A stretch of DNA of 64,000 nt from a virus: positions 1 through 64,000 of IMG/VR virus record IMGVR_UViG_3300044701_002512; one strand, written 5' to 3'. Below the pieces are notes generated by a model. The model worked only from the letters and a program-made list of their open reading frames with translations. It did no database searches and was not told the DNA's origin. Position 1 is the first letter of the stretch. Every line of letters begins with the position of its first letter. Positions 57,084-60,650 of this stretch are shown here, piece after piece. A program made the translations under genes and the position numbers.

Positions 57084-57342
57084 TGATGAAACTTTGATGA
57101 AAATGGAATATGATGCCATGAAGAAAGAACGCGACTCATGGCGTCGTAACTTTGAAGAACTGAAGATTAAATACGAAGAACTTCAAAATCTATTTGTAGA
57201 GACTGATGATGAACTCAACGAATATCGTGATAAATTCGTTAATGAAGCTATTCAGCATGAGTATTTGAAGAACGATTATGAATGGTTGCAGCAGGAAATA
57301 CAACATATTAAGCAGCGTTTATCGTTTCTAGAGAATCGATAA
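57061..57342 (+). CDS. Coiled-coil protein (93 aa)
   Basis: Mostly helical with heptad repeats (WRRNFEELKIKYEELQNLF, EWLQQEIQHIKQRLSFLE). The start is ATG 57061 or 57070; both overlap the previous gene. Its stop codon lies within the conserved 15-bp upstream element of the next promoter. Confidence 0.55.
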   Translation: MRKMNQYSDETLMKMEYDAMKKERDSWRRNFEELKIKYEELQNLFVETDDELNEYRDKFVNEAIQHEYLKNDYEWLQQEIQHIKQRLSFLENR

Positions 57343-57353
57343 GCAACACTGAT
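57339..57353 (+). promoter_or_regulatory. Conserved 15-bp upstream element, copy 1
   Basis: ATAAGCAACACTGAT ends exactly 10 bases before the -35 box at 57364. It matches copies at 58375 and 60313 (ATAAGCRACRCTGAT). Confidence 0.65.
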
Positions 57354-57363
57354 CAATCAACGC

Positions 57364-57392
57364 TTGACTCCTGGGTGGATCTCCTGTATATT
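57364..57392 (+). promoter_or_regulatory. Sigma70-type promoter
   Basis: TTGACT, a 17-base spacer and TATATT. The leader contains TAGGTAATCGAGA (57396-57408), identical to that at 60370-60382, and ends CCCCGATG with no Shine-Dalgarno sequence. Confidence 0.8.
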
Positions 57393-57417
57393 ACATAGGT
57401 AATCGAGAGACGCCCCG

Positions 57418-58374: not shown

Positions 58375-58389
58375 ATAAGCAACGCTGAT
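58375..58389 (+). promoter_or_regulatory. Conserved 15-bp upstream element, copy 2
   Basis: ATAAGCAACGCTGAT, again ending 10 bases before the -35 box (58400). This copy is in non-coding DNA. Confidence 0.65.
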
Positions 58390-58428
58390 GGGCAGGGCAT
58401 TGACCTGCCCTGTTTTTTGCTGTATATT
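58390..58428 (+). promoter_or_regulatory. Hybrid terminator-promoter before helicase
   Basis: GGGCAGG/CCTGCCC (58390-58396, 58404-58410) form a 7-bp hairpin followed by a T tract. The loop and 3' arm contain the -35 TTGACC (58400-58405), with TATATT at 58423-58428 after 17 bases. Termination of the upstream transcript and initiation of the next share the same bases. Confidence 0.75.
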
Positions 58429-58450
58429 TGATCTGTTGAAACGACACACC

Positions 58451-59701
58451 ATGAAACTTCGCTCCCACCAACAGACTGCTCTCGATGCCATGCTGCAGGC
58501 ATCCCACGGCAGCGTTCTGGTGCCCACTGGCGGCGGCAAGACCCTGATTGCCATCATGGATCTGCAGCGCCGTCTGAGCGCCTCTCAGCGTGGTCTGACG
58601 GCGGTTGTGGTCTGCCCCCGTCTGCTGCTGGTCAACCAACTGTGTGAAGAATACCTGCAGGTGATTGACACCAAGAATGTTCACATTCTGCATGTTCACA
58701 GTGGTGATACGCATCACTTCAGCAGCACTAAATCCGATAAGATTGCACTGTTCAATAACACTGCTCGTGCTGCTGGTGAATCTTGCATTATTTTCACCAC
58801 CTATCATTCTCTCAATCGTATTGTTGATGCTGGTGTTGACATCGATGTAGCATACTTCGATGAGGCACACAATGCTACCAGCAAGCAGTTCTTTCCTAAA
58901 ACTGCCATGGTTTCGCAGATGGCAAACAACTGCTATTTCTTCACTGCTACTCCTCGTCAATCCAAGAATCCGATGGGTCGTGGCATGAACAATTCGCTCG
59001 TGTTTGGCAAGACTCTGCATACTGTTCCTGCACAGGAACTGATTGACAGTGGCAGCATCATTCCTCCTCAGATTGTTATTCATGAGCAAGATATGGTGAC
59101 TCGCACCAAGCATAATGCTGCCAACTGTGACAGCAACACTGTGCTCGACATCATCGACAATCTCGATGCTGATGCTGGTCAAAAAATCCTGGTTGCTGCA
59201 CCTTCCTCCAAAATTATCTGGGGTATGGTAGCACAAACTGCAATGCTGCAGGATCTTGCTGAGCGTGGTTACGATGTGCTGCATATTACTGCTAAGCACG
59301 GTGCCTACATCAACAAGACCAAAGTGAACCGTGAGGTATTCTTTGACACGCTGACTGCATGGGGCAAGGATTCCAACCGCAAATTTGTGGTGTTTCACTA
59401 CAGCATCCTGTCTGAGGGTATGAATGTGCCTGGTCTGACCCATTGTGTGCTGCTTCGTAACCTCAATATCGTTGAGATGGCACAAACTATTGGTCGTGTG
59501 ATCCGCATGAATGCGGATGATGCCAAGGATATTGCGGAAGGCAAGATTCAACCTGGCGATCTGGGCAACTATCGCAAACCATTTGGTTTTGTGACTGTGC
59601 CTATCTACGGCAACTACGGTGCTCAGATTCAGAAACGCCTGCAATCTGTTGTGGATGCCATCTTCGTTCAGGGAATCCCTCCCGCTAGCATCATCGCATA
59701 A
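58451..59701 (+). CDS. SF2 DNA/RNA helicase (416 aa)
   Basis: Superfamily 2 helicase motifs occur in order: a Q-like LRSHQQTALDAML start, Walker A PTGGGKT (25-31), DEAH box at 137-140 (YFDEAHN), FFTATPR, and motif VI QTIGRVIRMN near 345-354. Size and order match the DEAD/DEAH helicases of T4-like cyanophages, functionally comparable to T4 UvsW in recombination or replication restart. Start is ATG 58451; an upstream in-frame ATG at 58388 lies before the promoter. Codons are G/C-rich (CTG, CAG, CGC), more like a host gene than the tail genes. Confidence 0.88.
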   Translation: MKLRSHQQTALDAMLQASHGSVLVPTGGGKTLIAIMDLQRRLSASQRGLTAVVVCPRLLLVNQLCEEYLQVIDTKNVHILHVHSGDTHHFSSTKSDKIALFNNTARAAGESCIIFTTYHSLNRIVDAGVDIDVAYFDEAHNATSKQFFPKTAMVSQMANNCYFFTATPRQSKNPMGRGMNNSLVFGKTLHTVPAQELIDSGSIIPPQIVIHEQDMVTRTKHNAANCDSNTVLDIIDNLDADAGQKILVAAPSSKIIWGMVAQTAMLQDLAERGYDVLHITAKHGAYINKTKVNREVFFDTLTAWGKDSNRKFVVFHYSILSEGMNVPGLTHCVLLRNLNIVEMAQTIGRVIRMNADDAKDIAEGKIQPGDLGNYRKPFGFVTVPIYGNYGAQIQKRLQSVVDAIFVQGIPPASIIA

Positions 59702-59707
59702 CCGTCA

Positions 59708-59743
59708 AGGGGGTTGACAACCCTCTTTTTTTTGTGGTATTAT
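59708..59743 (+). promoter_or_regulatory. Hybrid terminator-promoter after helicase
   Basis: AGGGGGTT, a GAC loop and AACCCTCT (one G-T pair) form an 8-bp hairpin followed by a T tract. The -35 TTGACA (59714-59719) spans the loop. TATTAT follows at 59738-59743 after 18 bases. No copy of the 15-bp upstream element is seen here. Confidence 0.75.
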
Positions 59744-59771
59744 CTCAGCACACTATTATTTGACACTAATC

Positions 59772-60326
59772 ATGTCTGAATCTCGCGCTACTTCTATTGC
59801 AGAATCGAAATATCCACGATTTGCACGGTTAAACTCTGATCGGAAAACTCGATGGAGATTGATGATTGTTCCTATTGTTGAACATGCTTTACAGAACTAT
59901 ATTGAAGTGACTCTCAAACCAAACAAAGATCGTGAATCACTACCTTCTCTACGATCTAGTGTTCTATTCATGTTTCCTGAGATGGCAGGAGACACTCAAG
60001 CAATCAACGCAATATCGAAATCTATCAGTGCTGCTTGGAACATTCGTAAGAGTGACAATACCCACCATAATGCCAGGTTCAAACCATACTATGAGCACCT
60101 GCCAAAGGTTCTGTTGGCGAACAAAGCACCAAAATCCTTGGTCGGCACCAAACAGGCACCAGAGGTCATCGCTGACGTTCCCGTTGCAGAAAAATCAGAA
60201 GTTGTAACACAACACTCTGATTCCGTGCCAGTTTCTATCAACTGCGATGGTATCATAAATGTATCTGGGGATTTAACCTACGATGATTGTATGGGTATCC
60301 TTAATATCATCTATAAGCGACGCTGA
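59772..60326 (+). CDS. Hypothetical protein (184 aa)
   Basis: Start is ATG 59772; a TTG at 59760 is less likely. The N-terminal half is helical and basic (TRWRLMIVPIVEHALQNYIE; AISKSISAAWNIRKSDN). A Pro/Ala/Val linker leads to a C-terminal domain (INCDGIINVSGDLTYDD, CMGILNIIYKRR). It resembles a nucleic-acid-binding arrangement but I cannot name it. Its last codons overlap the conserved element at 60313. Confidence 0.55.
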   Translation: MSESRATSIAESKYPRFARLNSDRKTRWRLMIVPIVEHALQNYIEVTLKPNKDRESLPSLRSSVLFMFPEMAGDTQAINAISKSISAAWNIRKSDNTHHNARFKPYYEHLPKVLLANKAPKSLVGTKQAPEVIADVPVAEKSEVVTQHSDSVPVSINCDGIINVSGDLTYDDCMGILNIIYKRR

Positions 60327-60327
60327 T
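60313..60327 (+). promoter_or_regulatory. Conserved 15-bp upstream element, copy 3
   Basis: ATAAGCGACGCTGAT ends 10 bases before the -35 box at 60338. Here the same bases also encode the C-terminal YKRR-stop of the preceding gene. Confidence 0.65.
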
Positions 60328-60332
60328 CGATC

Positions 60333-60366
60333 AGGGGTTGACGCGACCCCTTATTTCCCCTATACT
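60333..60366 (+). promoter_or_regulatory. Hybrid hairpin-promoter
   Basis: AGGGGT and ACCCCT form a 6-bp hairpin with a 7-base loop holding part of the -35 TTGACG (60338-60343). After a 17-base spacer comes TATACT (60361-60366). The downstream T tract is short, so terminator strength is doubtful. The leader has TAGGTAATCGAGA at 60370-60382. Confidence 0.65.
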
Positions 60367-60389
60367 ACCTAGGTAATCGAGACACACCG

Positions 60390-60650
60390 ATGCAAACGCC
60401 ACAACTGACCAGCAAAGATGGTAACATGGTGGTTGATTATTATCCTGTGAAGACTCCCTACGGTGATATTTCTACCAACTGGGTGTTTCGCATGGTAACT
60501 TTCATGCCTCATGGTCAGGTATCTAAAAAGTTTCTGAATCGTGTTGAACTGAAACTTGATATTCGTGAGCGTATCGCACACGGTTATACTCAAACCCGCG
60601 ACAATTCTAATCTGCCCCAACTGGGCAATCCTTTCCACGGTGCTTGCTGA
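60390..60650 (+). CDS. Small hypothetical protein (86 aa)
   Basis: Strands (DGNMVVDYYPVKTPYGDIST, WVFRMVTFMPHGQVS), then a helix (LNRVELKLDIRERIAHGYTQ). Not recognised. First gene after the 60338 promoter. Confidence 0.55.
   Translation: MQTPQLTSKDGNMVVDYYPVKTPYGDISTNWVFRMVTFMPHGQVSKKFLNRVELKLDIRERIAHGYTQTRDNSNLPQLGNPFHGAC

What the first reader, a model, noticed from the sequence alone, without database searches (positions are those of the whole stretch)
58390..60366. Hybrid terminator-promoters with the -35 box inside the hairpin
At 58390, 59708 and 60333 a G/C-rich hairpin contains the -35 TTGAC within its loop and 3' arm, and the -10 follows at 17-18 bases. The first two have T tracts. 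Upstream termination and downstream initiation therefore share the same bases, which could insulate successive small early operons in minimal space or couple them (readthrough clears the promoter).
Basis: seen in the sequence. Interest (0 to 1): 0.62.

Follow-up and report, generated by a model that had tools for sequence, protein, structure and literature searches.

The report
Phage terminators fused into promoters
In this cyanobacterial virus, and in many of its relatives, the signal that stops reading of one gene is built into the same few bases as the signal that starts the next gene, which probably keeps neighbouring genes separate and may let the enzyme that stops restart on the spot.

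Summary
At 58390-58410 and 59707-59727 a G+C-rich hairpin with a T tract contains the -35 (TTGACC, TTGACA), and a -10 follows at 17 and 18 bases. At 60333-60351 the hairpin is weaker and its T tract poor. One 64-kb window could not show this is more than chance; relatives do. In 17 cyanophage genomes plus the window, hairpin centre and -35 centre coincide (30 cases, nearly all within 1.5 nt; T4 none). Shuffled genomes give 0-3 against 31. Own arms pair far better than swapped arms. In an alignment of 11 junctions upstream of the helicase, arms change together while the -35 stays in or beside the loop. Among IMG/VR contigs, terminators with TTGAC in the loop have a -10 at 16-18 bases in 31 of 35 and 60 of 74 distinct sites. 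Best reading: a fused intrinsic terminator and sigma-70 promoter that insulates tandem transcription units; only upstream transcripts contain the hairpin. Closest known relatives are the PeSL terminator-promoter cassettes of T4-type phages, but in RB49 the terminator lies about 30-45 bp upstream of the -35. No RNA data exist here. 'Early' timing is unproven; restarting of released polymerase is untested.

The parts
58375..58389 (+). Upstream dyad element ATAAGCAACGCTGAT, ten bases before the -35
   Evidence: Exact match to ATAAGCRACRCTGAT; AAGC-AC-CTGAT with near-identical spacing to TTGAC in 51 IMG/VR stretches, most of them promoter-like
58390..58410 (+). Terminator hairpin GGGCAGG[GCATTGA]CCTGCCC
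   Evidence: conserved with covariation at the same junction in relatives
58411..58419 (+). T tract TGTTTTTTG after the hairpin
58400..58428 (+). Promoter: TTGACC, 17-bp spacer, TATATT
58451..59701 (+). Helicase gene (416 aa) downstream of hybrid 1 and upstream of hybrid 2
   Evidence: Pfam ResIII 1.1e-18, DEAD 2.7e-15, Helicase_C; tblastn matches in 418 phage records, whose organism names begin with Synechococcus, Cyanophage, Prochlorococcus or Marine
59707..59727 (+). Terminator hairpin AAGGGGGTT[GAC]AACCCTCTT, starting 5 nt after the helicase stop codon
59726..59733 (+). Run of eight T (the first two also pair in the stem)
59714..59743 (+). Promoter: TTGACA, 18-bp spacer, TATTAT
   Evidence: 11 of 12 consensus matches
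59772..60326 (+). Gene of 184 aa downstream of hybrid 2, no family known
60313..60327 (+). Upstream dyad element ATAAGCGACGCTGAT, overlapping the stop codon of the 184-aa gene
60333..60351 (+). Hairpin AGGGGT[TGACGCG]ACCCCT, followed by TATTTCCC: no proper T tract
   Evidence: z -1.15
60338..60366 (+). Promoter: TTGACG, 17-bp spacer, TATACT
60390..60650 (+). Gene of 86 aa downstream of site 3
57339..57392 (+). Fourth promoter of the cluster: same upstream element and TTGACT-17-TATATT, but no hairpin (internal control)

Best explanation
The sites at 58390 and 59707 are fused intrinsic terminators and sigma-70 promoters. RNA coming from the upstream gene folds the hairpin and, at the T tract, the host polymerase releases it. 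The same DNA carries the -35 inside or beside the loop; the T tract fills the -35/-10 spacer, and the -10 follows. Transcripts begun at the promoter start about 20 bases beyond the hairpin, so they never contain it and cannot be stopped by it. The result is insulation: each gene or small operon is set by its own promoter rather than by readthrough. Shown here by sequence: hairpin, T tract, promoter elements, exact register, conservation, covariation, position at tandem gene junctions. Inferred: actual termination and initiation, and their effect during infection. The hairpin at 60333 sits on a good promoter but probably terminates weakly or not at all.
For: TTGAC inside a terminator hairpin with a -10 at 16-18: 27 sites in 17 cyanophages plus the window, the highest of 60 letter arrangements (next CTTGA 21, which overlaps it; then 8), T4 0. 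Own arms give 22 strong stems against 2.23 +/- 1.3, maximum 6, when right arms are swapped between promoters; 17 of the 22 have at least 6 T in an 8-nt stretch of the spacer against 71 of 1007 promoters without hairpin. Hairpin and -35 centres coincide in 30 of 98 terminator-promoter pairs within 120 nt; shuffles give 0-3 against 31. Helicase junction: on an alignment of 11 sequences (8 IMG/VR contigs, the window, isolates S-CREM1 and S-H38) 89.8% of cells paired, 11 cells changed on both sides against 3.6, 0/500; 39 of 55 distinct junctions have a strong hairpin with at least 4 T in the next 8 bases. IMG/VR: -10 at 16-18 in 31 of 35 and 60 of 74 distinct sites, 27 and 52 at exactly 17. Of 96 such sites 87 follow a same-strand ORF end, 82 precede an ORF start, 2 lie inside a long ORF. 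The same cluster has a promoter with the same upstream element and no hairpin (57364), so the hairpin is not a required part of the promoter.
Against: No RNA ends were available; termination and initiation are inferred. Hairpins without a T tract are common at promoters with the ATAAGC element (GGGGGG-TTGAC-CTTCCCCCC; site 60333), which a terminator role does not explain. At the helicase junction the hairpin is missing or shifted in several phages (S-RIM44, Sf-CH3, QB2, Bellamy, L291-L294), and the -35 is absent from many that keep the hairpin. At the 59707 junction, L252 keeps the hairpin without a T tract, L255 has both, and most other close relatives have a different downstream neighbour. 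A few of the 27 sites are probably chance (CTTGAC...GTCAAG stems).
Confidence: 0.78

Rival explanations
1. The inverted repeat is a binding site (operator) for a dimeric protein that overlaps the -35; it is not read as RNA.
For: Site 3 and many relatives have the repeat without a T tract; a dyad-like element does sit just upstream.
Against: The arms differ completely between phages yet stay complementary (AGACCCCT/AGGGGTCT, AGCACCCT/AGGGTGCT, GGATCCT/AGGATCC, GGCAGG/CCTGCC to GGCGGG/CCCGCC); a protein site would keep its letters. T tracts follow specifically when the hairpin is strong.
Confidence: 0.08
2. The hairpin protects or processes the 3' end of the upstream RNA, or marks a pause, with little termination.
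For: Hairpins without T tracts exist.
Against: Enrichment of T tracts directly after the stem.
Confidence: 0.07
3. The hairpin acts as DNA: a cruciform or single-strand hairpin recognised at the promoter, as at the early promoters of phage N4.
For: The hairpin sits in the promoter at a fixed place.
Against: A DNA hairpin needs no T tract and no gene end upstream, yet both are present; the -35 and -10 are those of the ordinary host sigma factor.
Confidence: 0.03
4. Only the terminator is real; TTGAC in the loop is chance.
For: Many cyanophage terminators have no promoter within 120 nt, and at the helicase junction the hairpin is kept more often than the -35.
Against: The -10 at exactly 17 bases in 27 of 35 and 52 of 74 IMG/VR sites, with other spacings much rarer.
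Confidence: 0.04

Closest known systems
PeSLs (promoter early stem-loops) of T4-type phages RB49 and phi1 (Arbiol et al. 2010, doi 10.1093/gbe/evq006; not held here, known to me from memory)
   Same: Terminator stem-loop joined to a strong sigma-70 promoter in small cassettes between genes of a T4-type phage.
   Different: My scan of RB49 finds the two in tandem, terminator hairpin centre about 29-31 or 39-46 bp upstream of the -35 centre, and none with hairpin and -35 coinciding. Here they are superimposed.
Intrinsic (Rho-independent) terminators
   Same: G+C-rich hairpin followed by a T tract.
   Different: Loop and arms also carry the -35 of the next promoter.
Recycling of polymerase after intrinsic termination (Kang 2020, PMC6978380; Song 2024, PMC11347151)
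   Same: Terminator close to a downstream promoter; in vitro the released polymerase can restart nearby.
   Different: Those studies deal with nearby, separate promoters; here predicted 3' ends fall inside the promoter, about 5 bp before the -10.
Promoter hairpins of phage N4
   Same: A hairpin at a promoter.
   Different: N4 hairpins serve a virion polymerase as DNA structure (own knowledge); here the features are those of the host sigma factor and of RNA termination.
Same-geometry sites in bacterial genomes
   Same: 27 matches to a -10 at 16-18 among 80 sampled CCCTTGACNGGG terminators, about 6 expected from other spacings.
   Different: Much less frequent than in viral contigs (61 among 71 by the same count); so the design is not unique to phages.

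Membership tests
Intrinsic terminator | G+C-rich hairpin directly followed by a T tract | tested here: met
   Met at 58390 and 59707, not at 60333
Intrinsic terminator | RNA 3' ends in the T tract | not testable with these tools
   No RNA data
Sigma-70 promoter | -35 and -10 hexamers 16-18 bp apart | tested here: met
   10, 11 and 10 of 12 consensus matches; spacing preferred at 17 across IMG/VR
Sigma-70 promoter | RNA 5' end 6-8 nt after the -10 | not testable with these tools
   No RNA data
PeSL cassette | Terminator stem-loop and strong promoter joined between genes | tested here: met
PeSL cassette | Tandem order, terminator then promoter, as seen in RB49 | tested here: not met
   RB49 scan finds hairpins 29-46 bp upstream of the -35 and none superimposed; cyanophages peak at 0
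PeSL cassette | Near-identical repeats that recombine | tested here: inconclusive
   A 36-nt promoter segment is repeated at 57379 and 60353 (81%), but hairpin arms differ between sites
N4-type hairpin promoter | Recognition by a phage-encoded virion RNA polymerase | not tested
   No such polymerase gene was searched for in the window; ordinary -35/-10 elements are present

The most novel reading that the evidence does not exclude
A terminate-and-reload junction: polymerase that releases its RNA in the T tract is already standing on the next promoter (predicted 3' end about 5 bp before the -10), rebinds sigma and restarts there, so that output of the downstream gene follows traffic on the upstream gene without any readthrough.
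Probability: 0.2. Interest if true: 0.82.

Novelty: new variant of a known kind. Interest (0 to 1): 0.6.

Why it matters
[quoted passage not shown] It is common in sequenced cyanophages, gives annotators a way to find both signals at once, and offers a natural test bed for an open question: whether polymerase recycled after intrinsic termination restarts at the nearest promoter in living cells.

Tried and rejected
A search for relatives of the 184-aa gene in IMG/VR found none. Rfam found only tRNAs. My first regular expression for the class A upstream element was wrong and was corrected; class B rows include clear chance hits on both strands. Searches in the paper library for terminators overlapping promoters found nothing relevant. 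The transcriptome paper on phage Syn9 (Doron et al. 2016) and the PeSL paper are not held, so earlier mention there cannot be excluded. Simple genome compaction was considered as the sole cause; it would allow many offsets, whereas the register is exact.

Full report
WHAT IS THERE. The window is part of a 65,051-bp IMG/VR virus record; helicase similarity and gene order place it with T4-like cyanophages (Kyanoviridae). Three tandem junctions around a helicase gene were read again. At 58390-58410 the hairpin GGGCAGG[GCATTGA]CCTGCCC is followed by TGTTTTTTG; TTGACC starts at 58400 and TATATT at 58423. At 59707-59727 the hairpin AAGGGGGTT[GAC]AACCCTCTT runs into eight T; TTGACA starts at 59714 and TATTAT at 59738. 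At 60333-60351 AGGGGT[TGACGCG]ACCCCT is followed by TATTTCCC; TTGACG starts at 60338 and TATACT at 60361. By folding alone the hairpins stand out only moderately (z -2.78, -2.20, -1.15), and local counts of promoters and terminators are near chance.

IS IT MORE THAN CHANCE. I fetched 16 Kyanoviridae or related cyanophage genomes, Syn9 and T4 in pieces. Counting terminators (stem of at least 5, T tract) that contain TTGAC and have a -10 at 16-18 gives 27 sites in the cyanophages plus the window, and none in T4. Of 60 arrangements of the same letters, only CTTGA (21; it overlaps TTGAC, so these are probably largely the same sites) comes near; the next has 8. Combining the left arm of one promoter with the right arm of another drops strong stems over the -35 from 22 to 2.23 +/- 1.3 (maximum 6 in 100 trials), which shows that the arms are matched to each other; 17 of the 22 have a T-rich spacer, against 71 of 1007 promoters with no hairpin. 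The distance between hairpin centre and -35 centre peaks sharply at zero: 30 of 98 pairs, nearly all within 1.5 nt. Dinucleotide shuffles of the same genomes give 0-3 such hybrids against 31, although the shuffles also contain far fewer terminators (60-105 against 424).

THE SAME JUNCTION IN RELATIVES. The gene downstream of hybrid 1 is a helicase found in 418 phage records, so the junction can be compared. Isolates show the same design with other letters: AGACCCCT[tgac]AGGGGTCT in S-CAM22, AGCACCCT[tgac]AGGGTGCT in Syn2, AGACCCC[ttgacg]GGGGTCT in ACG-2014d, TGGACCCC[ttgact]GGGGTCCA in ACG-2014b; S-ShM2 has GGATCCT[tgac]AGGATCC there. Contigs of 81-93% protein identity keep the hairpin with wobble and double changes, for example GGCAGG/CCTGCC against GGCGGG/CCCGCC. 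On an alignment of 11 sequences (eight contigs, the window, and isolates S-CREM1 and S-H38; some fit the register imperfectly) the stem has 89.8% of cells paired, 11 cells changed on both sides against 3.6 in shuffles (0 of 500), and every slid register does worse. Of 55 distinct helicase junctions 49 have a strong hairpin somewhere in the stretch and 39 of these have at least 4 T in the next eight bases; many of those lack TTGAC, so the hairpin is kept more often than the -35. The 59707 junction is conserved in L255 with its T tract and in L252 without it; most other relatives have a different neighbour there.

HOW WIDESPREAD. Two exact patterns with TTGAC in the loop were run over IMG/VR. 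GGGTTGACAACCCNNTTTTT gave 35 distinct sites, 31 with a -10 at 16-18, 27 at exactly 17. Of 96 sites with a -10, 87 follow a same-strand ORF that ends within 200 nt (median gap 20 nt), 82 precede an ORF start within 150 nt, and 2 lie inside a long ORF. Upstream genes include what reads like the translational repressor RegA in two loci (my reading of the sequence, not searched). In bacterial genomes the second pattern also prefers a -10 at 16-18 but much less often (27 matches among 80 sites, about 6 expected). The design is therefore not exclusive to phages.

HOW IT PROBABLY WORKS. Upstream RNA folds the hairpin and is released at the T tract; the next promoter starts about 20 bases further on, so its own RNA never contains the hairpin. 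That gives insulation at no cost to the downstream gene. The internal control at 57339-57392, with the same upstream element and promoter but no hairpin, shows that the hairpin is not a required part of the promoter. Because the predicted 3' ends fall about 5 bp before the -10, the stopping polymerase must stand on the promoter; this could block it for a moment or let the released enzyme restart. In vitro work shows that polymerase often stays on DNA after intrinsic termination and can restart nearby (PMC6978380, PMC11347151). Which applies here is unknown. For 60333 I claim a promoter with a hairpin of unknown use.

COMPARISON WITH WHAT IS KNOWN. T4-type phages have terminator-promoter cassettes called PeSLs (from memory; the paper is not held). 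I scanned RB49, where they were described: hairpin centres lie about 29-31 or 39-46 bp upstream of the -35, in tandem, and none is superimposed. The cyanophage sites are thus a merged variant. Sullivan et al. 2010 predicted promoters and terminators in cyanophages, and the passages I read do not mention overlap. Paper searches found no description of this geometry, with the reservation that key papers could not be read.

LIMITS. Everything rests on sequence. The expression class is not known, so 'early' should not be repeated as fact. Hairpins without T tracts remain unexplained.

Noticed in passing
window 57339-57353, 58375-58389, 60313-60327: Element ATAAGCRACRCTGAT, roughly a dyad (ATAAGC-N3-GCTGAT), ten bases upstream of three -35s; found at ten or eleven bases from TTGAC in many IMG/VR contigs and in S-CREM1 and S-H38. 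Possibly the site of an unknown activator.
   Followed up: partly
S-CAM22, ACG-2014f, S-RIM2 and other marine isolates: A second element, TGTG(A/C)CAGT-N5/6-ACTG(G/T)CACA, at about the same distance from promoters whose -10 is often extended (TGC-NATACT) and whose -35 is often missing; looks like an activator-dependent promoter class. The list contains chance hits.
   Followed up: partly
for example S-RIM8 163139, Syn2 103855, Bellamy 185056, Syn9 168317: A second fixed register: the terminator hairpin begins 0-3 nt after the -10, so the start site falls inside the 5' arm, and the T tract often runs into the start codon. About a dozen cyanophage sites; transcripts of that promoter would lack the full hairpin.
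   Followed up: partly
window 57379-57414 and 60353-60388: A 36-nt segment from the spacer past the -10 (TAGGTAATCGAGA...) repeated at 81% identity, also seen in IMG/VR contigs such as L007 and L040; may be a mobile promoter cassette.
   Followed up: no
L510, L511 and other bacterial contigs: Hybrid-like sites also occur in bacterial genomes, some near-identical between two contigs (CCCCTTGACAGGGG...TTTTTTGCGCTATAAT), perhaps on mobile elements.
   Followed up: no
RB49 3191 and 112362: Two RB49 terminators have the -10 rather than the -35 in or near the hairpin loop.
   Followed up: no
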